A stretch of 60,850 nt of DNA, from positions 1-60,850 of IMG/VR virus record IMGVR_UViG_3300033149_001248; one strand, given 5' to 3'. Of this stretch, positions 1,093-18,215 are shown piece by piece; position 1 is the first letter of the stretch; the number at the start of each line of letters is the position of its first letter. The translations under genes were made by a program, and so were the position numbers. Below the pieces are notes generated by a model that had not been told where the DNA came from, did no database searches, and was given only the letters and a program-made list of their open reading frames with translations. Source of the stretch: a virus.

Positions 1093-3286
1093 TAGACCGC
1101 TCCTTGGTCGAACGAACGGGCCGCTGAATACCAATAACCTGAACCCGGTGATAGAGTTTCTTGATCCGCTCCGTGGCCCGCCAACGTTGGTGTAACCGGC
1201 TTTTACCCGGCCCTTCGGGGGCATATATCTCGATCACTCCGATTCCCTTTAGAAACCGCAGCAAGTGTCGAGCCTTATCATCGGGCAGATTCATAATCCC
1301 TGCTAACGTACTAAAGCGCAGCCCCTCGGGATACGTACACAGGTGTTCCAAGGCCGTTAGCGTTACGCCACGGGCCGTATCGAGGGCCACCCGCTTGACT
1401 CGACGCATGACGTGACGATCTACAGACGAACGGTTTAAGACTAGCGCCAGACACTTCGCTAGCCGGGTTAGCTGGCTTACCAGCCTAGCTCCAAACTCCC
1501 GTTCCGCCGTTTCGATCTGGCGGGTGGACGGACGGGCGCGCATATAGGCTACAAACTTGCCTAGTGCAACCAACTGCCGTCGGGCTGTATCGTCTATCTT
1601 GATCTTAGGCAGCAATCGGGGAGCGTTTTCCCGCAGCCACTCGACGTAACCCCCTGTAGCTCGCATAGCCTTGACCTTTTCTGGGCTATAGAACGATTCG
1701 GGTTTGCCGTTGGACTGGGTGCTGATCTCTTGCTCCGCTCGGTTGACTACCCGCCAGAGGATATCATCCTCAAGCTCATCGTCGATCCGCTCCATGATAA
1801 CGCAGTCCAAGAACCGTTCCCCTAGCTCTGATTGATCTAGGCTTCGGATAGCCGACGTTCCGCAGAGGATCCAGGTCATACGCACATTTTCGTATTCCCG
1901 GCTAGTCGCGTTTCGGTAATGACTCCGCGAAACACAGTCGTATATGTCGCGCGCTTCGGCTAGAATCTGCGAAAGGTTCGGCGCTTGAAGCAACGTATCC
2001 CCGTCTTTGATCACTAGGGTCTTGTCCCGTAGCTGGTTGATTAGCGAATAGTCCTGCCCGTCTTCGGTACGGAACCCGCTTAGGAATCCCCGAATACTCG
2101 ACTTCGCTACGACATGCTGCCGAGCAACGGCTAACGCTTCGCAGAGGGTTGACTTCGCCGTAGCGGCGGGACCGACTACCTTAAGCCATAGCTGGTCGCC
2201 GATGAATGGGGTACTAGCTACCGTAGCCAGCATAGCGGCCAGAGCGTGGTCGAGACCATCGGTCCACTTGAGGGCTTTTCTCCAGTGTCGTATCAATTCC
2301 CGATAGCTCGTACACCGAGCGGGTCTAAGCCGTAGGGGGTCGGCTCCGCTATCGCCCTTTGCTTCAATCCAATCCTGGGGCACGGGCCGGGTCCAGTCCA
2401 GCAACAGCTGGAGTCGTTCCCCCCGTTGAACGTCTGGCCGACCGAGTAGATCACGAACGTCGGCCCCTTCCCGCTCACTGAGGTTCGACTCCGCCCAATC
2501 CAGACAGTACAGCTTCGTGAGAGGAACCCCATGGGCATGGAGCAAACGGGCTACCCGCAACATCCCGTTTCGACCCCCGGTGTCGTTGTCGTACAGTAGG
2601 TGCACCGCTTCCCGGTCCTTGAACAGGGCTACCCATTCATCACGAAACACAGAGCAACCGGGTACGGCTAAAACCCCGGCCCCCTGGCCAAGACTGTTTG
2701 CTACGGAACCTGTCGGAACCAGGCGGTGGCCCAGGGGCTTGTAGCTCCGTAGGGTTTCCCAGAGCACGATGGCATCCCACAACCCTTCGCAAAGCCAAAT
2801 CGTTTTCGGCCCCTTCGGTGACGACTTCGGCAACAAGGGAATACCGAGTAGCTGGTGGCGAAACGGCTTCGGAGTCGCTAGGAGCACCCGTCGGCCTCTA
2901 GCCGTAGTGTAACGATATACCTGGCGGATATGGCCCCGTAGGTCGTAGGCTGGAACCAACCAATCCCCCAGCAACGGAGAACGGCAGACGCCCCAAGCCC
3001 AGAGGCTTTCCGCCCGACAACCCCGTTCCTCTGCCAGGGGTTCTAGGTCTTCCACTCGACCCGCTTTCTGGCCGATCTCACAAAGCCACTTCAAAAACCC
3101 GTAGGCGTTTCCGGCCCAGTTGCATACCCAGCAATGAAACCGCCCATCATCGGTACGCACGGCTAGTTTTCCGGCTTTCCCACATACAGGGCAATCTCCC
3201 GTTGCTTCCTCAGAACCGTCTTCCCAGGATAGCTCTAGGCCGTGAAACAGATAGACCCGTAGTCCTTCCGGTGCAACTTTAGGCAT
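1085..3286 (-). CDS. Primase-helicase (zinc finger, Toprim, P-loop ATPase)
   Basis: A 733-residue replication protein. The N-terminus has a CHC2-like zinc finger with Cys 32, 35, 52 and 55. A Toprim-like region follows (CEGLWDAIVLWE, then HLLYDNDTGGRNG). The second half is an ATPase with Walker A GPAATAKST, the region ILCGTS and the arginine-containing LGERFLD. This order matches phage primase-helicases that prime and unwind the fork. It ends 8 bases inside the downstream methyltransferase start and begins 8 bases inside the end of the MazG gene, so all are in one leftward operon. The helicase subfamily is uncertain. Confidence 0.85.
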   Translation of the reverse strand: MPKVAPEGLRVYLFHGLELSWEDGSEEATGDCPVCGKAGKLAVRTDDGRFHCWVCNWAGNAYGFLKWLCEIGQKAGRVEDLEPLAEERGCRAESLWAWGVCRSPLLGDWLVPAYDLRGHIRQVYRYTTARGRRVLLATPKPFRHQLLGIPLLPKSSPKGPKTIWLCEGLWDAIVLWETLRSYKPLGHRLVPTGSVANSLGQGAGVLAVPGCSVFRDEWVALFKDREAVHLLYDNDTGGRNGMLRVARLLHAHGVPLTKLYCLDWAESNLSEREGADVRDLLGRPDVQRGERLQLLLDWTRPVPQDWIEAKGDSGADPLRLRPARCTSYRELIRHWRKALKWTDGLDHALAAMLATVASTPFIGDQLWLKVVGPAATAKSTLCEALAVARQHVVAKSSIRGFLSGFRTEDGQDYSLINQLRDKTLVIKDGDTLLQAPNLSQILAEARDIYDCVSRSHYRNATSREYENVRMTWILCGTSAIRSLDQSELGERFLDCVIMERIDDELEDDILWRVVNRAEQEISTQSNGKPESFYSPEKVKAMRATGGYVEWLRENAPRLLPKIKIDDTARRQLVALGKFVAYMRARPSTRQIETAEREFGARLVSQLTRLAKCLALVLNRSSVDRHVMRRVKRVALDTARGVTLTALEHLCTYPEGLRFSTLAGIMNLPDDKARHLLRFLKGIGVIEIYAPEGPGKSRLHQRWRATERIKKLYHRVQVIGIQRPVRSTKERSNA

Positions 3287-3680
3287 GATCGTTCTCCGTC
3301 ACCATGTTGAGTGCTTGTTCTTCGGCAACCAAATCCCGATGCGCGGCCCGTTCGTCTGAATAGCGTTCCGGGTATCGTATCCGCAGCTTATTGATGTTGG
3401 CCTGTAACACCCGCTCCATAGACATCCCCAAGGCGTTACAGGCCAACGCGATATACCAAAGCATATCGCCTAGCTCCTCAACCAGCCGAACCCGATTGAG
3501 AGGTTGACCGTAGTGAATGTGTTTCTCCCATTCGCAAGCCAATTCCCCGACTTCCCCCATCAGGCCAATAAGAGCATGATTGAGTCGGGTATTAGTAACC
3601 GAGCTAGCCAACCGATGGTGGGCCGCTCCTTGGACGCATTCGGTCCGCTTCGCTAATCGTTGATACTCGTTAACATCCAT
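3279..3680 (-). CDS. MazG-like nucleotide pyrophosphohydrolase
   Basis: A 133-residue all-alpha protein with the MazG metal-binding pattern: EVGELACEWEKH followed by VEELGDMLWYIALACNALG. Family members hydrolyse NTPs or dNTPs to monophosphates and pyrophosphate. Next to a thymidylate-synthase relative and a nucleotidase, it plausibly reshapes the dNTP pool, for example dUTP to dUMP as substrate, or removal of dTTP. The substrate is inference. A GAGGGG ribosome site precedes the ATG at 3680. Confidence 0.85.
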   Translation of the reverse strand: MDVNEYQRLAKRTECVQGAAHHRLASSVTNTRLNHALIGLMGEVGELACEWEKHIHYGQPLNRVRLVEELGDMLWYIALACNALGMSMERVLQANINKLRIRYPERYSDERAAHRDLVAEEQALNMVTENDHA

Positions 3681-3695
3681 TCGTCAATCCCCTCA

Positions 3696-4250
3696 CTAGT
3701 ACAAACGAACTTCCCAGAAAACCGTATTATACCCCGGCAGCGTTCCCCAATTCACGGAGTAGGTGGAAAACTCAACTACGTGATCGGGGTAGCGGTCTAG
3801 TAAGACCTGGAGCCACTCATAGCTGTTAGGGCATAGGAATCGTTGCAGCAGACACAACGCGAACACACCTCTAACCGTTCGTCCTTGGAGGCGTAATGCT
3901 TCGCGCATCGGTCGAGCTACGCAACTGTAGTATAGGTCGAGGCCCCACAGCCCCCGCTGAACTTCGCCCTGAAAGACGGTTTTATCAGTGGGGGCCATGG
4001 CGCTAATATACAACTGGTCGGCCCGATAGTAGCGTAGGGCTTCCGCCCACGCCCGCTCGAACCCCTCTGGGGGAACGTTATACCAGGTCCGCGCTCCGGC
4101 TACCCGGTTGCGGATATGGACTAGCCCCTTGTATCCGTCGGCTAAATACTCCTGGCGCGTTCCCCAAGTAGGGGAGTGATTACCAAATTCGCCTCGGATA
4201 TACCGCTCAACGAAGTCGGCTTTAGTCAAAACAGGCGGGAAGTCGGCCAT
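3696..4250 (-). CDS. Unknown protein inside the modification cluster
   Basis: 184 residues, rich in Tyr, Trp and Arg, with no motif I can assign. Stretches such as GLVHIRNRVAGARTWYNVPP and a C-terminal half with several aromatic residues suggest a folded soluble enzyme or adaptor. No membrane segment or signal is visible. Its start overlaps the end of the thymidylate-synthase-like gene by 29 bases, and it sits between that gene and mazG. By guilt of association it is a candidate modification or nucleotide-pool enzyme; the function is not inferable from sequence. Confidence 0.75.
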   Translation of the reverse strand: MADFPPVLTKADFVERYIRGEFGNHSPTWGTRQEYLADGYKGLVHIRNRVAGARTWYNVPPEGFERAWAEALRYYRADQLYISAMAPTDKTVFQGEVQRGLWGLDLYYSCVARPMREALRLQGRTVRGVFALCLLQRFLCPNSYEWLQVLLDRYPDHVVEFSTYSVNWGTLPGYNTVFWEVRLY

Positions 4251-5283
4251 GACGTTTCTCCAACCAGAGGGCTAGGGCGTTTCTCCAACCGAAGTCTTTT
4301 ACACGACGCATCCACCGAGTCGCCCCTTCCACGTTCCCGGTTCGATGACAGAAAAAGCTATTCACGGCCGGGGCGACTACCTTAGCCAGCCACTGACTCT
4401 TCCAAGCATCCGGGTCGAGCAGGTGCTGGTATCCTACCAGACTATCGGTAAACGCTCCGGCCTCTTCCAACGCGATCCCATCGGGTTCCGGCCCTCTGGG
4501 GGAAGACACATAGTCGCTCAGCAACTGCCGGGTACTCGGCAACTCGTACCAGTCCAACCAGGTCTTCGCTCCGGCCAAAATAAAGCTATAGACGTGAGCG
4601 TTGTTCGTGAACTGGTAGTAACTCCCCTGCGGATAACCGGATAGACTAGCGACTACCGAGTGAATATAGCTGAAGTGGACTACGTTAGCCCCTAGTGCGC
4701 CCCAAACCAGGTCGTTAGAGCGGTTACAAACCGTCATCCTCAGACGACCGTTTTTCTCGACCATGAAATACAGATGCGTATTGCAGGGCAGGTCTTTGGA
4801 ACCGCTCGCCAACCCCCGTAGGTCAATCTCGGGGTTCCATATTGCCACGACTACCCGCCGTGTGTTGGGATCACGCTTGAGCTCATCGGCGGCTAGTCTT
4901 AGCTGGTCGATACTCAGAGGCGGGTATCGCCTCATGCGGTGTCCGTAGGCTCCCGACAACGTACAACCGTCGTCACTGTATTCGGCCATCCGCCGATTGA
5001 ACAGCGTCAGGGGTTTTACGTCGTTACGACCGGCCAGCATCCAGACGGTTTCAACTAGGTGAAAGACGGGGTTGGCATCTCGGGGCTGATTAAGCAATAC
5101 CCGAAGATACGGCATACGATACTCGATCAGCAACGGCTCCGTCAGTTGATAAATATGGCCTACCCGACTGTCTCGATAGCCGATGTCAGGGTCGGTTAAC
5201 TTCGCGTGGTCTGTTGCCCGTCGGTAAAACAAGCCAATCAAATCTTGAAACGCCTGGTTAACGTGCGCGTACCTGACTTCCAT
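4222..5283 (-). CDS. Thymidylate synthase homologue, probable dUMP hydroxymethylase
   Basis: 353 residues from the ATG at 5283 (AAAGGG six bases upstream; the frame extends further upstream but only within the nucleotidase gene). Family landmarks are DPNTRR near 138-143, the catalytic Cys167 in LPCNTH, NRSND at 187-191 and the substrate-sensing Asn200 in WGALGAN. That Asn is kept in dUMP enzymes and replaced by Asp in dCMP hydroxymethylases, which points to dUMP. Canonical ThyA has PCH at the active site; here it is PCN. With a DNA kinase-like protein and an amino acid:DNA transferase-like protein in the same operon, I infer that it makes 5-hydroxymethyl-dUMP rather than dTMP. Ordinary ThyA activity is the alternative. 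Confidence 0.85.
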   Translation of the reverse strand: MEVRYAHVNQAFQDLIGLFYRRATDHAKLTDPDIGYRDSRVGHIYQLTEPLLIEYRMPYLRVLLNQPRDANPVFHLVETVWMLAGRNDVKPLTLFNRRMAEYSDDGCTLSGAYGHRMRRYPPLSIDQLRLAADELKRDPNTRRVVVAIWNPEIDLRGLASGSKDLPCNTHLYFMVEKNGRLRMTVCNRSNDLVWGALGANVVHFSYIHSVVASLSGYPQGSYYQFTNNAHVYSFILAGAKTWLDWYELPSTRQLLSDYVSSPRGPEPDGIALEEAGAFTDSLVGYQHLLDPDAWKSQWLAKVVAPAVNSFFCHRTGNVEGATRWMRRVKDFGWRNALALWLEKRHGRLPACFD

Positions 5284-5848
5284 GGCGTACCCTTTCGACA
5301 TTAGGGGATTCAGACAAAACCTCAGACAACCGCTGCTTGAGGTAACGTATCGGGTCGTGGGTGTATAGTCGGTTTTGACTACACGGAAACAGAATCGCTT
5401 TCCCGCCCGCACGGCGGAATCCAATTATAGTCGATTCCCGGTCGTCTATGAGAACATTATCGGGTCGGGCTAATGCTGTCTTATGGGGCGTAAACACGTA
5501 GCGGTCGAACGTTTCCCCGAAGTATCTTCGCAACCAGCGTATCTTTCCGGCTACGCACTCGGGGTGCATCGACGGCGCGCTAACGATTAGCCACGGCACC
5601 CCCTGGTTCTCCACCAACTTGACTACGGACCAAAACCAAGGGGTAGGCTCTAGCCGCTCCCAAAACTCTGCCCCTAGTCGGTTAATCGGCTCCCAAAATT
5701 GGCGGGCGTTTAGACCCATAGGTTCGAGAATCGACCAGGCTCCCGGCTCTTTGCGCTCTAGTAGCCGCTCCCAATTCCAGCCGTGGACCCGTAAAGCACC
5801 CCCCACAAAGTCGGCTAGAACCTCATCCATGTCCAGCAAAATCATCAT
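5258..5848 (-). CDS. 5'(3')-deoxyribonucleotidase-like HAD phosphatase
   Basis: 196 residues. The HAD nucleophile motif is LLDMDEVLADF (Asp6, Asp8); motif II is LIVSAPS and motif III is NVLIDDRES. This is the 5' deoxyribonucleotidase type, which dephosphorylates pyrimidine deoxynucleoside monophosphates. In this cluster it could remove dTMP so that canonical thymine is not incorporated; that role is inference. It is the first gene left of the divergent control region and overlaps the next gene by 26 bases. Confidence 0.8.
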   Translation of the reverse strand: MMILLDMDEVLADFVGGALRVHGWNWERLLERKEPGAWSILEPMGLNARQFWEPINRLGAEFWERLEPTPWFWSVVKLVENQGVPWLIVSAPSMHPECVAGKIRWLRRYFGETFDRYVFTPHKTALARPDNVLIDDRESTIIGFRRAGGKAILFPCSQNRLYTHDPIRYLKQRLSEVLSESPNVERVRHGSQVRAR

Positions 5849-5992: not shown

Positions 5993-6337
5993 ATGGCTAA
6001 GACCCGTACCCCCAAAACCACGAAGACCACCAAGACCGCGAAGAAACCGGCCGCGAAGAAACCGGCCAAGAGCAACGGCCCGGCGTTGGGCAAGGTCCAC
6101 GTTCGGATTCTCCGAGCGCTCGCCAAGTCTGGAAAGCCTATGTCTCGTACCCAACTGGCCAAAGCAGCCCAAGTCCACCCGTCGGTCATCGGCAAATATG
6201 CCGGGTACGTCAACCCCGATATCAACGCCCGGCCCGTTCATAGCGGGAACCTGCTCAACCAGGGAATGGTTAAGATTGAAGCGCACCCCGACGGAACATA
6301 CTACGCTATTACCCCTAAGGGCCGTAAGGCCGTATAG
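5993..6337 (+). CDS. Small basic winged-helix DNA-binding protein
   Basis: 114 residues. The first 30 or so are a Lys/Thr/Ala/Pro tail resembling histone-type tails (KTTKTTKTAKKPAAKK), followed by a winged-helix fold: VHVRILRALAKSGKPMSRTQLAKAA, HPSVIGKYAG as recognition region, and a wing YYAITPKGRKAV. It is the only rightward gene in the leftward 1-19 kb block, with its own promoter and terminator, so it is a self-contained regulator or nucleoid-like protein. It lies exactly between the two halves of the modification cluster and could regulate them or bind modified DNA; that is inference. Confidence 0.8.
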   Translation: MAKTRTPKTTKTTKTAKKPAAKKPAKSNGPALGKVHVRILRALAKSGKPMSRTQLAKAAQVHPSVIGKYAGYVNPDINARPVHSGNLLNQGMVKIEAHPDGTYYAITPKGRKAV

Positions 6338-6370: not shown

Positions 6371-6406
6371 CCCCCTAGCCCCGTATCGGCTAGGGGGTCT
6401 TTTCTT
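6371..6406 (+). terminator. Rho-independent terminator of the small regulator gene
   Basis: A perfect 10-bp stem, CCCCCTAGCC (6371-6380) with GGCTAGGGGG (6388-6397), 7-base loop, followed by TCTTTTCTT. It terminates rightward transcription. The tail overlaps the stop of the converging amidoligase gene. Confidence 0.9.
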
Positions 6407-7385
6407 ATGGGTACAGGTGTTTGTACGGTTCGTTAGACACATCATCAAATCTCCCCTCTAGAATGGCCTGCCGGTTTCTAGCGACTATGGCTCTTGTATT
6501 CTTGGAGTAAGACGTTGCTTGCCAACGACGTTCTCGCCACCCAAGAAACTTCGGTCTCGGGGGAAACTCCCGATGCGCGTATCGTTCCCAATAGACGGCT
6601 AGCGGGTCGGTTCCCTCAATCAAGCAGATTAGTAGATCACGGCATAGCTCTATAGCGGTCAATACCTGCTCCGGCGTTTCCGCCTGGAAAAACGGCCGGA
6701 ACTCGATTGTATCGCTTTGGAGTAGCTGCCGGATATTAACCGTCGGCCTTGGTTGGGCGTGGTATAGCGGCTTTCCCGCTTTCGACCAGGGGCACTCTAG
6801 GCTGATTAGCTCCTCAACGGTTTTAGCCTCTAGCTGCTTACGAACTCGGTATTCGGGGATAATCGTCCAATGACTCCGTTTGATATGAGCTAGCCACTGT
6901 TTCAGTAACTTCCTATCGGCCGTTGTTTCGCAGGGATAATAGTCGGCATCTAGCGGGTCGATGACCTCTAGAAACGGACGCAAATTGAGACAATTGGTTT
7001 GTATCCGTTTCAGAATCTCAAGACCCCGCTCCCGTAAGCCGGGAACCCGGATATGGACTTGGGTACCTGCCCGGTGGGTTACTCTAGTTTCAGGGAATCG
7101 GGTTAGAAACTCATGGAACAGCTGGGCCTGCCCGTCCGGGGTATCGGTCGGCGGGGTGTTAATCTCCGCTCCAAACGGGTAGTCTTTCAGCGTTGGGTCG
7201 CCTGCTATTCCGTTCGTGTTTGTAATCTGAGGTTCTGGGTCTCGACCGTAGCCCTCCCAACCCCGGCGGGTGTCCCAGTCGGACAGCTCGTGCTCCGCTC
7301 CATAGGTCCAATACTTCGGGTCGAGCCAGTGATACTTAGCTATTCCCCATAGTCGTTGCCGTTTCTTCCGTTGTTTCTTCGCCAT
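6405..7385 (-). CDS. Amidoligase-like enzyme (glutamine-synthetase-like fold)
   Basis: 326 residues. The pattern matches the amidoligase family related to glutamine synthetase: GAEHEL near 29-34 (metal-binding acids), GAEINTPP, HIRVPG, RPTVNIRQLLQ and TIEFRPFFQ. Family members are thought to use ATP to form amide bonds between a carboxylate and an amine. Directly after the PLP enzyme and the DNA transferase-like gene, it may extend or cap an amino acid on thymine, or prepare the substituent; this is inference. Assignment rests on motif order; the N-terminal 20 residues are a basic tail. Confidence 0.65.
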   Translation of the reverse strand: MAKKQRKKRQRLWGIAKYHWLDPKYWTYGAEHELSDWDTRRGWEGYGRDPEPQITNTNGIAGDPTLKDYPFGAEINTPPTDTPDGQAQLFHEFLTRFPETRVTHRAGTQVHIRVPGLRERGLEILKRIQTNCLNLRPFLEVIDPLDADYYPCETTADRKLLKQWLAHIKRSHWTIIPEYRVRKQLEAKTVEELISLECPWSKAGKPLYHAQPRPTVNIRQLLQSDTIEFRPFFQAETPEQVLTAIELCRDLLICLIEGTDPLAVYWERYAHREFPPRPKFLGWRERRWQATSYSKNTRAIVARNRQAILEGRFDDVSNEPYKHLYP

Positions 7386-7399
7386 GGCCTAGCTCCTGC

Positions 7400-8254
7400 T
7401 CAGCCAATATTCCAAAACAGCGTATCCGGGTAACGTTCCCGTTCTCGCACCCACCAACGAAACGCCTTTAGGTCATAGTACGGATTGCAAGGCCAATCAG
7501 GTGTCGGTCCGGGGCGGGCCGTATCCCGATATTGATAACCCTCGTCAATTACCTCAACCGGGAAGTCATCTACTCCTGACATCTTCAACAAGTATTTCAA
7601 CACGGCTGTTTCTGGCCGGGAATACCCCAGGTGAATCAGAAACCTAGCCACCTGAATCCCCCGCTCAACGAACCCTCGTATAACCCCCGCTGCAATCGTT
7701 CCGCTACTAGCCGGAATCAGGACGTAACGGAACGGACGGTTAGGCACTTCGGCCGCTGTCTCCGCCACCGTTTCTGGTAGCTTCAGCGCGTTGGGCATCA
7801 TATAACCGCCTTCGGCTTGGCATAGTTTCTTCGCCTGGTGATAGAGGATAGCCGATCTTCCGGCGGGTAGCCCGACTAGCTCCGCTCCGTAGCTCTGGGC
7901 TAGTCGCTGGGGGGCCCTCGGCCCTGGTTCACGTTTGTACTCGGGATAGTAGTTGAGGCATCGCTTACCTAACGACCTACAGACTCGGGCGACGGCCGCT
8001 CCGGCTTGGCTATGGTAGGTGTCTAGCACTCCGATAACCGCTTCAGGGCGGCTAGCAATTCGCCGATAGCATCCCCGAATCTTGGAAAAGTAGGGGCCAG
8101 GGGGTAGGCAGGCTAGGTCTTCGCGCTTCACCCACAGCCCCCATTCCTCACGAAACTCTATCGGGGTGCCTACTCGGATAATACCATGAACAACCCGGCC
8201 CCTAGAGCGTCGGCAGGTGTTGGAGCAATCGTTGGTTGGTTCTCGTTTTGGCAT
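7400..8254 (-). CDS. PLP-dependent enzyme, fold type II (ACC deaminase/threonine synthase-like)
   Basis: 284 residues from MPKREP, chosen because many phage proteins here begin MPK; an in-frame ATG at 8287 is the alternative. WVKREDLACLPPGPYFSKIRG places the likely Schiff-base lysine at Lys58, and PASSGTIAAGVIRG is the phosphate-binding loop of fold type II enzymes. Such enzymes do beta/gamma elimination, replacement or deamination of amino acids. In characterised phage pathways PLP enzymes act on thymine-linked amino acids in DNA; here the fold type differs from a typical decarboxylase, so I do not predict the reaction. It overlaps the transferase-like gene by 53 bases. Confidence 0.75.
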   Translation of the reverse strand: MPKREPTNDCSNTCRRSRGRVVHGIIRVGTPIEFREEWGLWVKREDLACLPPGPYFSKIRGCYRRIASRPEAVIGVLDTYHSQAGAAVARVCRSLGKRCLNYYPEYKREPGPRAPQRLAQSYGAELVGLPAGRSAILYHQAKKLCQAEGGYMMPNALKLPETVAETAAEVPNRPFRYVLIPASSGTIAAGVIRGFVERGIQVARFLIHLGYSRPETAVLKYLLKMSGVDDFPVEVIDEGYQYRDTARPGPTPDWPCNPYYDLKAFRWWVRERERYPDTLFWNIG

Positions 8255-8993
8255 ATCTAAGCAACGCCTTTCTGATATCATGAACATCTTTCCCGATGTA
8301 GTAGTGGCCCGATAGGTGCGACTTCCACTTGCAGAAAACCGTTTCCGTTTCCTGAACGTTCAGCCCCCGTTCGCCTCTGGGAGGCGCTAGTCGTTCGCCC
8401 AACCCGTCGAGTAGGTATCTATGAGCGTCAACTAGCGTTCCCCCGCCTAGGTATCGTTCGGCTACTAGATTTGCCCCCTGCTTTGATGTAACGAACATGT
8501 CGTCCAGGTCGGCTTCGCTAAACTCGATGGGCGCTATAGCTAGTCGCTCTAGCATATCGGGAACCTTCCACTTAATCCACTCGCCAAACCCCGGCAACTC
8601 CGTTACCCGTCGCATCACGTCTCCGGCCTTCGGCCCGGCTTCGATCAACCAGTCAATAACGGCTCCCGCCCCCTGGGGGAAACGATTGCGTAGATACCCG
8701 ATAGCCCGTTTGGCTATCCGCCCCCGGAAGTGCCTACGCTCAACCCCTCTAGGCCAATGGGTTCCGCCTTCGACTATAGCCATCATACCCTTCCAATACT
8801 CAGTCGAGTCGGCTATCTCGCTAACGATACCACAGACCCCGGGATGGTAGTAGCACCAGTAGGTTACTAGCCAACGACGTAGCTGGTCCGGGGGTAGCTC
8901 CGCTTTCCAGAGCGCTACGTACAGAGGATCAAGGTCCAGGGTATCGACTAGCCGCTGGCCAAACTCGATGGCCGGTAAAGCGTCTTTGTTCAT
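8202..8993 (-). CDS. Amino acid:DNA transferase-like protein (thymine pyrophosphorylase family)
   Basis: 263 residues from MNKDALPAIE, where GGGAGA sits 7 bases upstream. The mostly helical sequence has WLVTYWCYYHPG near 41-52, EGGTHWPRGVERRHFRG near 75-91 and a helix-hairpin-helix-like segment LPGFGEWIKWKVPDM at 133-147. To my knowledge this is the signature of the alpha-glutamyl/putrescinyl-thymine pyrophosphorylase family, also called amino acid:DNA transferase. These enzymes displace the pyrophosphate of phosphorylated 5-hydroxymethyl-dU in DNA with an amine. The attached amino acid cannot be read from sequence. Confidence 0.75.
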   Translation of the reverse strand: MNKDALPAIEFGQRLVDTLDLDPLYVALWKAELPPDQLRRWLVTYWCYYHPGVCGIVSEIADSTEYWKGMMAIVEGGTHWPRGVERRHFRGRIAKRAIGYLRNRFPQGAGAVIDWLIEAGPKAGDVMRRVTELPGFGEWIKWKVPDMLERLAIAPIEFSEADLDDMFVTSKQGANLVAERYLGGGTLVDAHRYLLDGLGERLAPPRGERGLNVQETETVFCKWKSHLSGHYYIGKDVHDIRKALLRYAKTRTNQRLLQHLPTL

Positions 8994-9007
8994 CGTTCGG
9001 TCTCCCG

Positions 9008-10327
9008 TTAGATACCCCGCCAGGGTCGTTGAAGGTCTTTCAGTCGCAGCTTCCGCGCTTCGCCCATGAGCGTATCTCCGCATGGGGGCACATCTCCCTC
9101 ATGCTCTACGCAATACAAGCATCCCGACGGCGGGCAGCAGTCTAGGGGCTGGAACGGCTCATCGAGTGAGTGGCGTCGATAGACGGGCACGGCCGGTCCA
9201 TGACACTGAGCCGCTGTCGTGAATCGAGGCCCAAGGCTTGCTAGTGGTTCCCCTTTCCCCGTTGAGCAATACTCGTAGCATAGCCCGTAGGTTAGCCCTA
9301 ATCGTCTAGCCGCGGCCCGAAGTCGCTTATGGGCGCGTATCCGATAGTCTTCGTCAACGGTTCGCTGCCCGCCGATGTTCTGATTGAACAACCGCTCGAA
9401 CTGCTTACCTCGCTTGCCAAACACTCGTATCATCCGGCTAACCAACGTTGGTGCCCAGGAGAAACCAGCCTCCACAAACTTAACGATCACGTGGTCGGCT
9501 CCGGCATCGGCTAGCATGCGGAACAACTCGACTAGCTGATCGTTGCTAGTGACTCCGGGGATGACCGGATTAACCTGAATTGATACGTAGATACCAGCGT
9601 CATGTAACCGCCGAACATCCCGTAGCTGGTCGTCTAGCGGTGGAGCCCCTGGACTCATACGTCGCCAGTCATCGGGGTCCGACGTATTGATTGACTTTTG
9701 CGCATAGCTGTAGGGGTTCCGCCGTAGGAGCCCAATTGCCCAGGTTGGGTAGGTTAACCGGCTTAGGAAGAAAATTGGCAGCCCTCGATTAACGAACGCT
9801 CCGGCCGTTCGCATCGAGTTACCATACCACGATTCTAGCGGATTGAACGGGTCGTGAAAGCTAGTAATGTATCCGGCGGCAGCCCTATAGCAACGGTCTA
9901 GCTCCCGACCGACTTGCTCCCCGTAGTTAACTGGAACGGTTACTAGCCCCGTGCCCCGATAGCCGCGCACCCCGGCGTTGACGTAGCAATGAATACATCG
10001 CACGGGACAATAGCCCCCGTATGGCTCGGTCAGTAGCGCTTCAGTATAGCAAGGTCGAGGCCGTACCCCGGCCGGTTCGTGCTTCGACTTGTACCAGCCC
10101 TGAATCGACTTCCCCCGCTCTAACCGAATATGCGGGTAGGGGTCTAGATACACCTTGACGCGCATCTTTTCCTTGGCGTTTCGCACCATACCTATCTCCG
10201 CCCATCGTACTCGCATCTTCCGGCGGAGTAGGGGGTCATCCTCTAGCTCGATTGGGCCTAGGTACTTGCAAGGCTCCGGTCGCATGAAGTAGGCATAGCC
10301 GGTTTCGTCAGTCTTGGTTTTTGGCAT
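9008..10327 (-). CDS. Radical SAM enzyme, spore photoproduct lyase-like
   Basis: 439 residues. CxxxCxxC is at Cys107, 111 and 114 (YCPVRCIHCYVNAG), which binds the 4Fe-4S cluster and SAM. The barrel resembles the spore photoproduct lyase group, which acts on thymine in DNA. The C-terminal 60 residues carry extra cysteines (CCPPSGCLYC and a later Cys), possibly a second cluster. Radical SAM enzymes rearrange thymine-linked amino acids in known phage pathways; that role here is inferred from position between the kinase and transferase-like genes. It overlaps the kinase by 20 bases. Confidence 0.85.
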   Translation of the reverse strand: MPKTKTDETGYAYFMRPEPCKYLGPIELEDDPLLRRKMRVRWAEIGMVRNAKEKMRVKVYLDPYPHIRLERGKSIQGWYKSKHEPAGVRPRPCYTEALLTEPYGGYCPVRCIHCYVNAGVRGYRGTGLVTVPVNYGEQVGRELDRCYRAAAGYITSFHDPFNPLESWYGNSMRTAGAFVNRGLPIFFLSRLTYPTWAIGLLRRNPYSYAQKSINTSDPDDWRRMSPGAPPLDDQLRDVRRLHDAGIYVSIQVNPVIPGVTSNDQLVELFRMLADAGADHVIVKFVEAGFSWAPTLVSRMIRVFGKRGKQFERLFNQNIGGQRTVDEDYRIRAHKRLRAAARRLGLTYGLCYEYCSTGKGEPLASLGPRFTTAAQCHGPAVPVYRRHSLDEPFQPLDCCPPSGCLYCVEHEGDVPPCGDTLMGEARKLRLKDLQRPWRGI

Positions 10328-10874
10328 TGATCGACTCCCTTATCCAACGCAGTATTAGGTCAGGGGCCTGTTCGCAGGTAACTCGCCGACACTCGACCCC
10401 AGCCTCGGTAAGCCTCTGTCTAGCCCGCTCAATAACCTTCACCCGCCTAACCGTCTTAAACGTATTCAGTGGCTTCGTATTTCCAACACTCAACCGCCGT
10501 TTCCGTATCCGCTCTAGACAGGTGTCTATCGGGGTGGTCAGAAACACAACCTTGAGCCGATTCAACTGTGAACTCCACTTAACATCTTCGCTCAGTAATA
10601 GCCCCTCCGCGAGAACAACGGCGGGGTCGTGCTCGGTTATCACCTGTTGAATCAGCTGGTAGATAGCTCGGGCGTTTCCTATCGTATCCCCGCCACCGGA
10701 AGGGCTTTCGTAATGGCCTAATACGATTATACCCTCACTCTTGTAGTACAAAGGGTTTCGCCGTCGGGGTCGATACACGGGATACAGGGTTCGGTTTAAT
10801 CGTTTCAAGACTTCACGCATGACGGTGCTTTTGCCGGAACCCGATGTTCCTCGAATCTGAATCACGGTGGTCAT
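10308..10874 (-). CDS. 5-hydroxymethyl-dU DNA kinase-like P-loop kinase
   Basis: 188 residues. Walker A is GTSGSGKST at 9-17, followed by IIVLGHYESPSGGGDTIGN, a pattern I associate with phage 5-hmdU DNA kinases, then VVLAEGLLLS and CLERIRKRR as lid-like region. These kinases phosphorylate 5-hydroxymethyluracil in polymerised DNA, activating it for substitution. A GTGGAG ribosome site precedes the ATG. The next gene upstream, 3 bases away, matches the kinase's helical domain, so a protein that is fused elsewhere appears split here. Confidence 0.8.
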   Translation of the reverse strand: MTTVIQIRGTSGSGKSTVMREVLKRLNRTLYPVYRPRRRNPLYYKSEGIIVLGHYESPSGGGDTIGNARAIYQLIQQVITEHDPAVVLAEGLLLSEDVKWSSQLNRLKVVFLTTPIDTCLERIRKRRLSVGNTKPLNTFKTVRRVKVIERARQRLTEAGVECRRVTCEQAPDLILRWIRESINAKNQD

Positions 10875-10876
10875 GG

Positions 10877-11725
10877 CTAATTCTCCACACGATAGATTCT
10901 CTTAGGTCGGCCCTGATTAAACAGCGTCCGTTCGTATCGGTCAAACTCGCACAGGCAATTCTGCCAGTCAATCGCTTCCATGCGTCGGGTTAGTCCTCTA
11001 GGTAGCTTCGGTTCTAGGTTGTTTATTAGCTCAGTGAGGTAGCTCTCAAACGCCTCTTGGTTTAGGGGATGATTCAGGCGTCGCTCTAGAACACGATTCA
11101 ATCCACGACGGGAACCCGGACCCATCGGCGCCCATACCCGGCGGTCTTTCCACTGGCCGGTTAGAGCTAAGCGCAGGTCAGCCGTAATTTGCCCAGCCAT
11201 AAACGATCCCATGCCGCGTCGAGGCACCAGCGCAGCCCAGGTCTCCCGCATGCTGTCGGTATTGATCGGTGGAGGATTGTCGGCTAGAGGACAGACCGTA
11301 TAATCAACGACGCACGATACCTTGTCTGTCCCATCGTTACCCCTGACCATATAGGCGCCGTTGAAAATCGTGTTGCCCTGACGTCTGTAGGCCCGTAGTT
11401 GTTGCTTTACCCGCTCCGGCTCCCATGTCTCCGGGAACCCGATTAGCTCTAGGGTCTCCGGCCGGTTGAAGAATCTCGCTAGCGCGCAGGCGATTAGCAT
11501 ATTGGGATGGTCTTTATAGGGATTATACCAGTGGCGGATCAGCCACCGACTAACCCGGTCATCCCGTCGGATAACATTACAGAAACGATAACGCCTCAGA
11601 ATCGGATCATCCGTCCAGGGCCAGGGTTCCCCGGCCTCTTTACGCTGGCGGATAGTCTCCCGTTCCCGAATCCAATAGACTAGCCGATCAATCGGCCGCA
11701 GCTTCGCTACCCGTTCCAGGTCCAT
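10877..11725 (-). CDS. 5-hmdU DNA kinase helical-domain protein
   Basis: 282 residues from MDLERV (TGGAGG 6 bases upstream). Conserved features are EREtIRqRKEAGEPWPWTDDPIL (20-43), YRFCNVIRRDDR (46-57), RFFNRPETLELIGFP, IFNGAYMVRG and a late GPGSRRGLN. To my knowledge this is the helical domain that accompanies or is fused to 5-hydroxymethyluracil DNA kinases in phages and some eukaryotes. It probably recognises DNA or the modified base. It is the first gene of the cluster, 30 bases downstream of the polymerase. Confidence 0.75.
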   Translation of the reverse strand: MDLERVAKLRPIDRLVYWIRERETIRQRKEAGEPWPWTDDPILRRYRFCNVIRRDDRVSRWLIRHWYNPYKDHPNMLIACALARFFNRPETLELIGFPETWEPERVKQQLRAYRRQGNTIFNGAYMVRGNDGTDKVSCVVDYTVCPLADNPPPINTDSMRETWAALVPRRGMGSFMAGQITADLRLALTGQWKDRRVWAPMGPGSRRGLNRVLERRLNHPLNQEAFESYLTELINNLEPKLPRGLTRRMEAIDWQNCLCEFDRYERTLFNQGRPKRIYRVEN

Positions 11726-11755
11726 GGCTTCCTCCAAATAGTCGTCTAGGATGTG

Positions 11756-13894
11756 TTAGGCATCGTCTAACGGGCTTCCGTCGGAACCTAGCCGAATCCC
11801 CTCACTCCAGTTGTCGCTGTGGTATTCGATACCTACGGGCGTGGGAACCCCTATATCATCCCCGACCCGCTCCATAAGCCGTCGAATCTTCATGATCTTC
11901 GGCAGGTTTTCCCGCCAAGGCTCTGGCCCCCGGCCCCTGGGAAAGTCGAAGACCAATTCATCGTGTACCTGAATCACCATATAGTAGCCCCTAGGGTCTT
12001 TCCGATTCAGCATATTTAGATACCAAAAGCAGTTAATCATTGCTTTCATCATCCACCAGCAAGCCGTTCCCTGTACCCGATAATTCAGAGGAACCGTCGG
12101 CCGAACCCCGCCCCACCTGGTGCGTTCGCAGACTAGGGGATAACCTCGTTTCGGGTCCACGGTTTTATCGGGGAACGTTTCCACGTAGCCGTTCTCATCA
12201 GCAAACCGAATCGACTCTTGATTCAACTGGTGTATCTGCTTAAACCGTTTCTGAATCTTCGCCTGCGCCCCCTTAACGTGGTAAGCACGGTCGGCGGTTC
12301 CGCTCGATTCGACGGCCCCGTATTGTACAGCAAAATTGCCGTTTTTCACCCACTGGTACCAGGTAGCCTTGTATTTTTTCTTGAACAACCGACCATCTAT
12401 CTCACCATCCGGACCCCGGCATTCCTCGAACAACTCGGGGTGGAGGATATGCGCCACTAGTAGATGATAGCTCCCGTAGTACGGTGGCTCACCGGGCCGC
12501 TCGAACAAACGGATCATCTCCCGTTCGCCCGCTTTGTAGGCGGGTATGCGTAGCTCGATATTCTCCGCGTCCAGCGACCACCACTCCCGCCCCGGCCCTG
12601 GGCCGAAACAGTAGCGTAGGTTGAAGCCTTCCTGCTTGCTGATATTTTGTTCGTTAGGGTTCTGACTCGACCACCGCAACGTGTTTGTTCCCGTCGGGTT
12701 AAGACTCGGGTGAAGCACCATCCAACCTTCGTCATCCGTCGGTAGCCAAAACCGCTCGTAGCCCTTTAGGTAGTTGATCGCCGTATCCCGTTTCCGTTTC
12801 TCCGCTAGGGCTTTCAGGAACCGATAGGCATCGGATTCCGGGGGTAGCCGGTCTAGGTAGCTCGATATAGCATACTTGTTTAGCTGTAGCTGCCCCGTCT
12901 TCGATGAACGGAGAATCGCTTTTGAGCCGATAGTTTCTCCCATCGTTCCCGCCCGGTCCCAGGGGGCTTGTTCGGCTAGACGATCTACGTCAACCAACGC
13001 TTCGGTCAACAATCGTTCCGCCACCGCTAGCAACGAGCGGTTGTTTCCCGCCCGGGGTAGCTCTAGCTCCATCCCATGACGGGTGGCTATCGCTTTACAA
13101 CGGTTGCCGAACCGGCGGCTTTCGCGCTGGTAACGCATCCGTAGTTGTCGGAGTCTCGGGCGGTTTACGGTGATCCCTCGCCGTTCCATAGCGCAGACTA
13201 TCGGCAGAACCTTCAGCCGCTCCCTGTAGATACGCACCAATCTCCGTTGCCAAATCAATCGACGCTGTACCCGCCAAAGGGCTAGCGTCGTTGCGCTATC
13301 GGCATTTGCATATTCGGCTGCTACCAGTCGCCAGGGGTGGTCCTGGGGGTAGCCCTCTAGCTCCGCTAGCTGAGCGGGCAGCCAACTATCAAACTTCCAA
13401 ACCGATTGCTTCGCGCTCGGCATATCGGGCCGTCCTGCGGCGGCTATCTGAATATCGGGGTATTGCCGGCGGGCTAGATTCCGCGCTTGCTGGACTGCTT
13501 CCGACAACCGCTTTTCGTATTCGGATATGTCCACCCCTAGATACTCCAGCGCCATGGTCGTTAGGTCGTGGGGGTGGAGGCTATTCAGCAGGTGCCCGGC
13601 TAGTAGGGTATCCCGAACCTTCGACCAATCCCAGCGAAGGTCGGGCATAATCGTCTTGAGCGCTTGATAGTCAAACTTGGCGTTCTGGAGAACAAGCACT
13701 GTTGCCCGATCTATCGCGTCCTGAATCTCCGCTAGTGAGCGTTCGTCTATCTTCGGCTCACGGGTTTGGGGATCGACCTCAAACGTCCACCACTCTTGCT
13801 CCCCGTTTGCCCAAGCCATCGTGACTAGATACGGTTTGGCTCCGTGGTAGAGGTCTAGACCAGTCGTTTCGGTATCCAGCGCAGCAGTAGTCAT
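11756..13894 (-). CDS. DNA polymerase, family A with 3'-5' exonuclease
   Basis: 712 residues. The exonuclease domain is N-terminal (ALDTETTGLDL with the DxE pair, then LQNAKFDYQAL). Polymerase motif A is WWSLDAENIELRI, motif B the O-helix region WVKNGNFAVQYGAVESSG, and motif C VIQVHDELVFDF. There is no 5'-3' exonuclease domain, as usual for phage enzymes. Motif A has AEN where most family A enzymes have SQ, and motif B reads KNGNFAVQYG rather than KAINFGLIYG. The enzyme would have to accept 5-hydroxymethyl-dUTP if the modification model holds. Confidence 0.95.
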   Translation of the reverse strand: MTTAALDTETTGLDLYHGAKPYLVTMAWANGEQEWWTFEVDPQTREPKIDERSLAEIQDAIDRATVLVLQNAKFDYQALKTIMPDLRWDWSKVRDTLLAGHLLNSLHPHDLTTMALEYLGVDISEYEKRLSEAVQQARNLARRQYPDIQIAAAGRPDMPSAKQSVWKFDSWLPAQLAELEGYPQDHPWRLVAAEYANADSATTLALWRVQRRLIWQRRLVRIYRERLKVLPIVCAMERRGITVNRPRLRQLRMRYQRESRRFGNRCKAIATRHGMELELPRAGNNRSLLAVAERLLTEALVDVDRLAEQAPWDRAGTMGETIGSKAILRSSKTGQLQLNKYAISSYLDRLPPESDAYRFLKALAEKRKRDTAINYLKGYERFWLPTDDEGWMVLHPSLNPTGTNTLRWSSQNPNEQNISKQEGFNLRYCFGPGPGREWWSLDAENIELRIPAYKAGEREMIRLFERPGEPPYYGSYHLLVAHILHPELFEECRGPDGEIDGRLFKKKYKATWYQWVKNGNFAVQYGAVESSGTADRAYHVKGAQAKIQKRFKQIHQLNQESIRFADENGYVETFPDKTVDPKRGYPLVCERTRWGGVRPTVPLNYRVQGTACWWMMKAMINCFWYLNMLNRKDPRGYYMVIQVHDELVFDFPRGRGPEPWRENLPKIMKIRRLMERVGDDIGVPTPVGIEYHSDNWSEGIRLGSDGSPLDDA

Positions 13895-17357: not shown

Positions 17358-18215
17358 TTACAAACAACGATTATAGCCCCTCCCGTCTAGCGATTCCCGT
17401 AGGTCCGCTAGGGAAACAATAGCCCGCTGCACGGCTAGGTCTTTTGCCCAGGATTCTAGCCGGAGTATCGCTGCGGGGTGGACTATCTCCTTGGTCAATA
17501 GCCGTTCCCGTTGATCTTCGGGTAGAGCGTAAGGGCCGTGCTTAGCGGCTAACCGCCCAACCCACACGACGGCTCTGGGGTGACTCATAGCTAGAAACTC
17601 CGCCAGCCTCGGGCGGCAAGCCTCGATCCACTCGGGTATCGGCTCGATCTTAGCAGCGTCGATGTTCTCAAGAAACAACTCCCGTAGCAACTCCCCGTAG
17701 CAAGCCTCGCTACCCCCGCAACCGCAACCGATCCGTAACCCGGCTAGGACGGGCAGTCGTTTAAGCCGTTGCTTCCCCTCACGGGTGTCGGTGTACCAGC
17801 CCCGCGCCCTCTGAACCCCGGCCGGGGTATCTACCCGAAACGGCAGCGACCACTCCCGGCTCTTAGGCAGCCATACGTCCGAAGACCGAGGGTCATGAAC
17901 TACTTGCGGCGGACTAAGGGCCGGGAAGCATCCGACTAGGTTAGTGATAGCATAGCTTCGGAAGTCGGGGCCTAACCCCTGGGTAATGACGTAGTCAAGT
18001 AGGTGCCCGGCCGGTCCAACGAACGGTCGCCCAATTACGTTCTCGCTAGCTCCGGGGGCTTCCCCGACAAAGACTACTTCAGCCGGAACCCGACCCCTAG
18101 CTAGTACCACTCGGTTACGACACTGCGATAGCCTACAACGCTGGCATCGAGACCAACGACGGGCGTGTCTCTGGAAGGGGGTCAATCGACTCTTAGCTGG
18201 CTTGGTTGACTTCAT
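17358..18215 (-). CDS. Uracil-DNA glycosylase, Fe-S family 4/5-like
   Basis: 285 residues. Fe-S cysteines are at 24, 27 and 32 (CQRCRLSQC) with later CGCGG/ACYG cysteines. Motif A is FVGEAPGASEN (49-59), followed by IGRPFVGPAGHLLD. An insertion of about 80 residues separates the two halves, longer than in typical 200-residue members. The enzyme removes uracil from DNA. In a phage that may polymerise hydroxymethyl-dU it could police uracil misincorporation without touching the modified base. ATGA overlap with the preceding gene. Confidence 0.85.
   Translation of the reverse strand: MKSTKPAKSRLTPFQRHARRWSRCQRCRLSQCRNRVVLARGRVPAEVVFVGEAPGASENVIGRPFVGPAGHLLDYVITQGLGPDFRSYAITNLVGCFPALSPPQVVHDPRSSDVWLPKSREWSLPFRVDTPAGVQRARGWYTDTREGKQRLKRLPVLAGLRIGCGCGGSEACYGELLRELFLENIDAAKIEPIPEWIEACRPRLAEFLAMSHPRAVVWVGRLAAKHGPYALPEDQRERLLTKEIVHPAAILRLESWAKDLAVQRAIVSLADLRESLDGRGYNRCL

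What the first reader, a model, noticed from the sequence alone, without database searches (positions are those of the whole stretch)
6405..8254. PLP fold-type II enzyme paired with an amidoligase behind a DNA transferase
The two genes are adjacent (14 bases) and directly follow the transferase-like gene. Fold-type II enzymes do elimination or replacement rather than classic fold-type I decarboxylation. An amidoligase would add an amide-linked group. This pair does not match the sequence of steps I know from characterised pathways.
Basis: partly seen in the sequence, partly recalled or inferred. Interest (0 to 1): 0.75.

Follow-up and report, generated by a model that had tools for sequence, protein, structure and literature searches.

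The report
Amidoligase in phage thymidine-modification cassette
This phage carries the known gene set that turns thymine in its DNA into an amine-bearing base, plus an unrecognised ligase-type enzyme that, judging from more than 60 related viruses, probably attaches a further group (perhaps an amino acid) to that amine, which would be a new kind of DNA base decoration.

Summary
The PLP gene (7400-8254, minus strand) has the D-cysteine-desulfhydrase/ACC-deaminase fold and is the orthologue of the PLP enzyme in the phage M6 thymidine-hypermodification pathway, so that half is known. The adjacent gene (6405-7385) has no direct Pfam, PHROG or NCBIfam hit. Its predicted fold matches the glutamine-synthetase/glutamate-cysteine-ligase superfamily, catalytic-type residues are invariant in 60 of 60 relatives, and close relatives match Amidoligase_2. 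In an unbiased search its relatives are viral and sit almost only in base-modification cassettes (57 of 60 clusters), beside one of four enzyme sets that should each yield a primary amine on a base: rSAM+PLP, a FAD enzyme, a glutamine amidotransferase, or QueF. In FAD/PLP cassettes they take the position otherwise held by a GNAT acetyltransferase and never co-occur with it (0 of 17 against 7 of 14, p=0.0013). Best explanation: an ATP-dependent amidoligase that forms an amide on the base-linked amine. This is inferred; donor unknown, no chemistry shown. M6 and the other annotated PLP-bearing phages lack this gene. The one published phage DNA amide ligase I found (CmoY) is AsnB-like and uses a carboxyl on the base. 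New variant of a known kind.

The parts
6405..7385 (-). AMLIG: GS/GCS-fold carboxylate-amine ligase (amidoligase), 326 aa
   Evidence: AF2 model and fold matches; E31, E33, E74, E228, R213, R230 in 60/60 relatives; relatives L021, L028, L048, L060 above the PF12224 cut-off
7386..7399 (-). 14-base gap PLP-AMLIG with AGGAG ribosome-binding motif
   Evidence: sequence
7400..8254 (-). PLP enzyme, fold type II (D-Cys desulfhydrase/ACC deaminase-like); orthologue of M6 gp52; candidate Schiff-base Lys58 in the SK-x-RG motif (start codon uncertain)
8202..9083 (-). ADDT / aGPT-Pplase2, amino acid:DNA transferase (real start may be ATG near 8993, after the rSAM stop)
   Evidence: PF18724 E 1.1e-13, phrog_6364 E 5.5e-59
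9008..10327 (-). radical SAM enzyme, M6 gp53 family
   Evidence: phrog_9252 E 3e-154
10308..10874 (-). P-loop 5-hmdU DNA kinase-like
   Evidence: HMUDK_HMUD1 E 9.6e-6, just under its cut-off; homologue of M6 gp54
10877..11737 (-). HMUDK_hel / aGPT-Pplase1
   Evidence: PF18723 E 2.8e-47
4222..5424 (-). thymidylate-synthase-like, candidate dUMP hydroxymethylase
   Evidence: PF00303 E 1.9e-20; M6-type TS homologue
5258..5848 (-). NT5C deoxynucleotidase (accessory, also in L021)
   Evidence: PF06941 E 5e-12
3279..3680 (-). MazG-like pyrophosphohydrolase (accessory, also in L021)
   Evidence: PF03819 E 2.6e-9
11756..13894 (-). DNA polymerase A at the upstream end of the cassette
   Evidence: sequence; synteny with L021

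Best explanation
The window holds an M6-type thymidine-hypermodification operon with one added step. Expected from the known pathway: 5-hmdU in DNA is activated by the kinase/HMUDK_hel pair, ADDT attaches an amino acid (glycine in M6), the radical SAM enzyme rearranges it, and the PLP enzyme decarboxylates it to leave 5-(2-aminoethyl)-dU. Inferred here: the gene 6405-7385 is an ATP- and metal-dependent GS/GCS-fold amidoligase. It activates the carboxyl of a small acid (glutamate by its gamma-carboxyl, or another amino acid) as an acyl phosphate and joins it to the primary amine of the modified base. The result would be an amide-capped base, in place of the acetyl cap expected from GNAT-bearing sister cassettes. 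Shown: fold, conserved catalytic-type residues, cassette membership, and replacement of GNAT. Inferred: the amine of the base as nucleophile, the donor, and that it happens on DNA.
For: Fold: all 50 chains listed are of the GS/GCS ligase superfamily, best Z 10.0 over 212 residues; six Glu/Arg positions are invariant in 60/60 relatives. Unbiased context: relatives were fetched with AMLIG patterns only. Of 60 clusters at 90% identity, 53 have ADDT and 51 the kinase within 10 kb, mostly on the same strand, and 57 have ADDT, kinase, HMUDK_hel or QueF. Baseline: ADDT was found in only 102 of 50,697 phage records. Convergence on an amine: the amine-making slot is filled by a GATase (28 clusters), the FAD enzyme (19), PLP (7), QueF (1) or GATase+QueF (1), with none found in 4. 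The AMLIG tree shows PLP contexts in at least 3 places and a QueF context nested inside the FAD clade. Substitution test: among 31 FAD clusters, 17 have AMLIG, 7 have GNAT and none has both, p=0.0013; no GNAT occurs in any of 94 AMLIG loci. GNAT lies directly after FAD or PLP in all 10 cases; AMLIG lies directly after in 16 of 26, as in the window.
Against: No biochemistry exists. The functions of the FAD lyase, the PLP decarboxylase and GNAT rest on my memory of Lee et al. 2021, which was not held. The two QueF genomes have no DpdA or TGT match, so their target being DNA is unproven. The rSAM-PLP-AMLIG contigs of L005 and L013 have neither ADDT nor HMUDK_hel. The window copy departs from the family at H109 (Q) and H231 (P), each H in at least 54 of 60, so its activity may differ. 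A phosphatase-like partner gene (LMWP), next to most relatives and fused in L028, is absent from the window and has no assigned role here. The p-value treats 31 clusters as independent; the FAD tree is poorly resolved.
Confidence: 0.6

Rival explanations
1. AMLIG makes a free small molecule (for example a gamma-glutamyl or isopeptide compound) that ADDT then transfers to activated 5-hmdU; it does not touch DNA.
For: ADDT is the commonest neighbour (53/60); GS/GCS enzymes usually act on free metabolites (general knowledge).
Against: AMLIG persists in QueF genomes that lack ADDT (L010, L002). ADDT is also present in AMLIG-free cassettes. AMLIG, not ADDT, is what exchanges with GNAT.
Confidence: 0.13
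2. Opposite polarity: AMLIG activates the carboxyl of the base-linked amino acid before PLP or FAD acts and joins it to an amine, like CmoY on 5-carboxymethylcytosine.
For: CmoY shows that a phage ligase can amidate a base carboxyl with glycine (PMC12783734).
Against: PLP decarboxylation and the FAD step are expected to remove that carboxyl, and preQ1 in the QueF genomes has none. GNAT, which acylates amines, takes the same slot.
Confidence: 0.12
3. AMLIG modifies a host protein, peptide or cell wall and sits in the cassette only by chance, like the amidoligase modules of LUZ24-type phages.
For: LUZ24 carries Amidoligase_2, GATase_6, RimK and GGCT genes without base-modification genes; such modules are proposed to act on peptidoglycan (PMC11945000).
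Against: The AMLIG profile does not match LUZ24 gp18 (E 0.14 among 8 proteins). Co-location with base-modification genes in 57 of 60 clusters and exclusion with GNAT.
Confidence: 0.06
4. The PLP enzyme performs beta-elimination or replacement (as D-Cys desulfhydrase does) rather than decarboxylation, and AMLIG acts on that different product.
For: The closest solved folds are eliminases/deaminases.
Against: Orthology and synteny with the M6 PLP gene, a pathway for which decarboxylation is reported (memory of Lee et al. 2021); a fold does not fix the reaction.
Confidence: 0.09

Closest known systems
Thymidine hypermodification cassette of Pseudomonas phage M6/YuA (gp51-gp58), also SN1 (PMC9476957) and Pseudanabaena phage Pam3
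   Same: HMUDK_hel, kinase, ADDT, rSAM, PLP and TS-like genes all present and homologous
   Different: None of the 69 phage records with the PLP gene carries AMLIG (only Simon and Vibrio phage 2.275.O matched); no Nmad5 match in the window
CmoY of Synechococcus phage S-B43 (Nat Commun 2025, PMC12783734)
   Same: A phage ATP-dependent ligase that forms an amide on a DNA base
   Different: AsnB-like, AMP-forming; the base gives the carboxyl and glycine the amine, on cytosine. AMLIG has the GS/GCS fold and the base is inferred to give the amine
GNAT acetyltransferases of FAD/PLP cassettes (e.g. L189, a 59,878-base record of the same length as phage PaMx11; L112)
   Same: Same gene position and same presumed substrate amine
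   Different: GNAT needs acyl-CoA; AMLIG is an unrelated ligase fold and never co-occurs with it
Amidoligase_2 modules of LUZ24-type phages
   Same: Same broad ligase superfamily; a GATase_6 partner as in the GATase branch (LUZ24 gp19 matches the GAT profile)
   Different: Amidoligase not matched by the AMLIG profile; RimK/GGCT neighbours, no base-modification genes
GS-like ligases that put glutamate on amines (YbdK/GshA; 1-naphthylamine GS)
   Same: Fold (Z 8.2-10.0); the amide-forming chemistry would be analogous
   Different: Substrates are small free molecules; identity 8-14%

Membership tests
M6-type thymidine hypermodification pathway | HMUDK_hel + kinase + ADDT + rSAM + PLP genes in one operon | tested here: met
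M6-type thymidine hypermodification pathway | pyrimidine hydroxymethylase (TS-like) supplying 5-hmdU | tested here: inconclusive
   TS-family gene 4222-5424 present; hydroxymethylase activity not testable
M6-type thymidine hypermodification pathway | modified thymidine in virion DNA | not testable with these tools
   needs nucleoside LC-MS
PLP fold type II (D-Cys desulfhydrase/ACC deaminase-like) | fold over nearly the whole chain | tested here: met
   Z 23.6, rmsd 2.5, 253 residues
PLP fold type II (D-Cys desulfhydrase/ACC deaminase-like) | Schiff-base lysine | tested here: met
   Lys58 (SK-x-RG after KRED) invariant in 12/12; assigned by motif position, not by a ligand structure
GS/GCS carboxylate-amine ligase superfamily | fold | tested here: met
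   (Foldseek prob 0.98 but E 1.9e-3; Z up to 10.0)
GS/GCS carboxylate-amine ligase superfamily | conserved metal/ATP acidic residues and arginines | tested here: met
   E31, E33, E74, E228, R213, R230 60/60; the His-x-His pair is Q109/H111 in the window; mapping to GS residues from general knowledge
GS/GCS carboxylate-amine ligase superfamily | ATP-dependent amide formation | not testable with these tools
   needs an enzyme assay
Pfam Amidoligase_2 (PF12224) | profile match above the gathering score | tested here: inconclusive
   window protein: no hit; relatives L021 30.1, L060 31.0, L028 23.6, L048 22.5 against 22 bits
CmoY-type DNA amide ligase | asparagine-synthetase-like (AMP-forming) fold | tested here: inconclusive
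   AMLIG matches GS/GCS folds; no asparagine synthetase among the rows shown, which does not exclude it
LUZ24-type amidoligase module | homologous amidoligase with GATase/RimK/GGCT neighbours | tested here: not met
   profile does not match gp18; no such neighbours in the window

The most novel reading that the evidence does not exclude
A virus-specific amidoligase family, usually with a small phosphatase-like partner, is a general amine-capping module for modified DNA bases. It has been re-coupled several times to different amine makers, on both thymidine and 7-deazaguanine, and installs amino acids by amide bonds, so that the base bears an isopeptide-like group.
Probability: 0.4. Interest if true: 0.78.

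Novelty: new variant of a known kind. Interest (0 to 1): 0.62.

Why it matters
It predicts a class of DNA base, an amide-extended aminoalkyl-uracil (and perhaps 7-deazaguanine), in around a hundred uncultured phages and at least one sequenced phage genome, Simon. It assigns a likely role to a gene that library profiles cannot place. It shows that phages exchange an acetyltransferase for a ligase at the same step. It also makes open questions directly testable: which acyl groups phages put on base amines, what the phosphatase-like partner does, and whether one capping enzyme can serve both pyrimidine and deazapurine bases.

Tried and rejected
Pfam, PHROG and NCBIfam gave nothing for the window amidoligase itself; sequence search of PDB found no true relative. 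A single-sequence scan of viral contigs found nothing; alignments were needed. The scan of 84,980 prokaryote genomes found no relative. Megablast of the first 25 kb against phages: no match. I considered that LMWP absence was specific to the PLP branch (0 of 7 clusters), then rejected this: L028 is an AMLIG-LMWP fusion in a PLP cassette, and L127 has PLP, AMLIG and LMWP. TGT and DpdA were sought in the QueF genomes and not found. No asparagine-synthetase fold appeared among the rows shown. Lee 2018/2021, the EcoSal review and the 2023 7-deazaguanine paper are not held, so statements from them are from memory; they or Iyer et al. 2013 might already mention amidoligases in such operons. Paper searches combining amidoligase with DNA hypermodification gave none.

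Full report
WHAT IS THERE. On the minus strand the window carries a compact operon: DNA polymerase A (11756-13894), HMUDK_hel (10877-11737), kinase (10308-10874), radical SAM (9008-10327), ADDT amino acid:DNA transferase (8202-9083), PLP enzyme (7400-8254), the gene in question (6405-7385), NT5C nucleotidase (5258-5848), TS-like (4222-5424) and MazG (3279-3680). The window is a 60,850-base virus record with terminase, portal and tape-measure genes. The PLP stop and the next ATG are 14 bases apart with an AGGAG motif between them. The PLP ORF overlaps the ADDT stop by 53 bases. Its N-terminal 19 residues have very low model confidence, so the true start may lie later.

THE PLP ENZYME IS A KNOWN PART. 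It is 47% identical to phage M6 gp52 and 54% to Pam3_43. It matches 69 of 50,697 phage records, mostly Yuavirus-type Pseudomonas phages, and in M6 and Pam3 it sits in the same cassette. The SN1 paper lists the M6 cassette as hydroxymethylase, Nmad5, aGPT-Pplase1, kinase, rSAM, PLP enzyme and aGPT-Pplase2 (PMC9476957). The model has the D-cysteine desulfhydrase/ACC deaminase fold (Z 23.6 and 23.0), and the lysine of the SK-x-RG motif that follows KRED is invariant in 12/12 relatives. From memory of the abstract of Lee et al. 2021 (Nucleic Acids Res, gkab781; not held), the pathway uses radical SAM isomerases, PLP-dependent decarboxylases, flavin-dependent lyases and acetyltransferases acting on amino acids installed on 5-hmdU; 5-aminomethyl- and 5-aminoethyluracil are listed as natural phage bases in PMC11550810. 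So the PLP step most likely yields 5-(2-aminoethyl)-dU.

THE NEIGHBOUR IS AN AMIDOLIGASE. Library profiles miss the window protein. An AF2 model from 13 relatives (pLDDT 85, pTM 0.84) matches glutamine-synthetase and glutamate-cysteine-ligase structures: YbdK Z 10.0 over 212 residues, GshA 9.6, GS 8.7, 1-naphthylamine GS 8.2. Foldseek alone is weaker (E 1.9e-3, prob 0.98). E31, E33, E74, E228, R213 and R230 are identical in 60 of 60 relatives, in the motifs GxExE, GGE(I/L)N and T(I/V)EFR, which resemble the GS/GCS metal/ATP motifs (general knowledge). Relatives L021, L028, L048 and L060 match Amidoligase_2 above its cut-off. The window copy differs from the family at H109 (Q) and H231 (P).

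RELATIVES SIT IN BASE-MODIFICATION CASSETTES. Patterns from the amidoligase alone fetched 103 relatives from IMG/VR, 80 of which were kept and read. None was found in 84,980 prokaryote genomes, and two in annotated phages: Simon (36%) and Vibrio phage 2.275.O (25%). After clustering at 90% identity, 60 remain: 53 have ADDT, 51 the kinase and 46 an LMW-phosphatase-like gene (LMWP) within 10 kb, nearly always on the same strand. 57 have ADDT, kinase, HMUDK_hel or QueF; of the other three, two are contigs of 4-6 kb and one is L020, with rSAM-PLP-AMLIG. ADDT itself was detectable with the window query in 102 of 50,697 phages, a lower bound because divergent ADDTs are missed.

FOUR NEIGHBOUR SETS, ONE LIKELY PRODUCT CLASS. 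In one slot near the amidoligase lies a class-II glutamine amidotransferase (28 clusters), the FAD enzyme (19), PLP with rSAM (7), QueF (1) or both GATase and QueF (1); 4 have none found. Each would be expected to leave a primary amine on a base: aminoethyl, aminomethyl, ammonia-derived aminomethyl (my inference), or preQ1. [quoted passage not shown] The amidoligase tree places the window in a five-member PLP clade (100/99), has PLP contexts in at least three places, and nests one QueF context inside a FAD clade with good support. So the amidoligase was re-coupled to different partners.

IT TAKES THE PLACE OF AN ACETYLTRANSFERASE. A separate scan with the FAD enzyme gave 35 loci (31 clusters): 17 carry the amidoligase, 7 carry a GNAT (PF13508 E 9e-11), none carries both (Fisher p=0.0013). 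No GNAT of this family occurs in any of the 94 amidoligase loci. The GNAT directly follows FAD or PLP in all 10 cases; the amidoligase does so in 16 of 26, including the window. On a poorly resolved FAD tree the two labels are intermixed. The PLP scan gave 79 loci, 8 with the amidoligase. It is therefore an optional tailoring step. This substitution is the strongest single argument that the amidoligase acylates the same amine.

PARTNER PHOSPHATASE-LIKE PROTEIN. LMWP (PF01451 E 5e-15 in Simon) directly follows the amidoligase in 33 of 60 clusters, keeps Cys7, Arg13, Ser14, Asp115 and Pro116 in 46/47, and is fused to the amidoligase in L028. The window lacks it. Its role is open: it might clear a phosphorylated intermediate or donor.

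PRECEDENT AND DIFFERENCE. The only phage DNA amide ligase I found in held papers is CmoY, which joins glycine to the carboxyl of 5-carboxymethylcytosine and is AsnB-like (PMC12783734). LUZ24-type amidoligases sit in a different setting and are not matched by the AMLIG profile. An amide ligase of the GS/GCS fold acting on a base-linked amine would be new as far as I could check, but the main papers on this pathway were not readable here.

WHAT IS SHOWN AND WHAT IS NOT. Shown by computation: fold, residue conservation, cassette membership, partner exchange. Inferred: that the base supplies the amine, that the reaction is on DNA, that the donor is an amino acid. Limits: 23 relatives not read; 10 kb windows; contig ends; independence of clusters assumed; QueF genomes have no DpdA or TGT match; L005/L013 contigs lack ADDT and HMUDK_hel.

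Noticed in passing
L028:9731-11410: One ORF fuses the amidoligase (PF12224) to the LMW-phosphatase-like protein (PF01451), which links the two functionally.
   Followed up: partly
L014, L016, L017, L046-L092: A large branch pairs ADDT and the kinase with a stand-alone class-II glutamine amidotransferase (GATase_6) and has neither FAD/PLP nor HMUDK_hel/TS nearby: possibly direct use of ammonia to make an aminomethyl base.
   Followed up: partly
L005:7023-11882 (same contig as L020): rSAM-PLP-amidoligase plus a second large radical SAM gene on a 59.5 kb contig with no ADDT or HMUDK_hel match; several AMLIG-free PLP loci (L164-L180) look alike. A different route to the base may exist.
   Followed up: partly
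L021:9186-9977 and L022:4825-5499: Glycosyltransferase-like (MDDDLD) and P-loop sulfotransferase-like ORFs (by eye, no Pfam hit) lie between PLP and the amidoligase in two of the closest relatives: further decorations?
   Followed up: partly
L010:8234-11280 and L002:11866-24559: QueF/QueE cassettes with the amidoligase but without any DpdA or TGT match in the whole record.
   Followed up: partly
L153:7388-8987: In some AMLIG-free PLP loci two ORFs, one looking GNAT/FemAB-like and one methyltransferase-like by eye (no Pfam hit), recur in 7-9 loci: other candidate tailoring enzymes.
   Followed up: no
window 17358-18215: Uracil-DNA-glycosylase family gene (PF03167 E 3e-16) in a phage that probably carries modified uracil bases.
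   Followed up: no
window 5993-6337 (+): Small basic K/A/P-rich protein with a weak HTH match, opposite in strand to the operon; the same arrangement in L021 (11006-11410) and L022.
   Followed up: no
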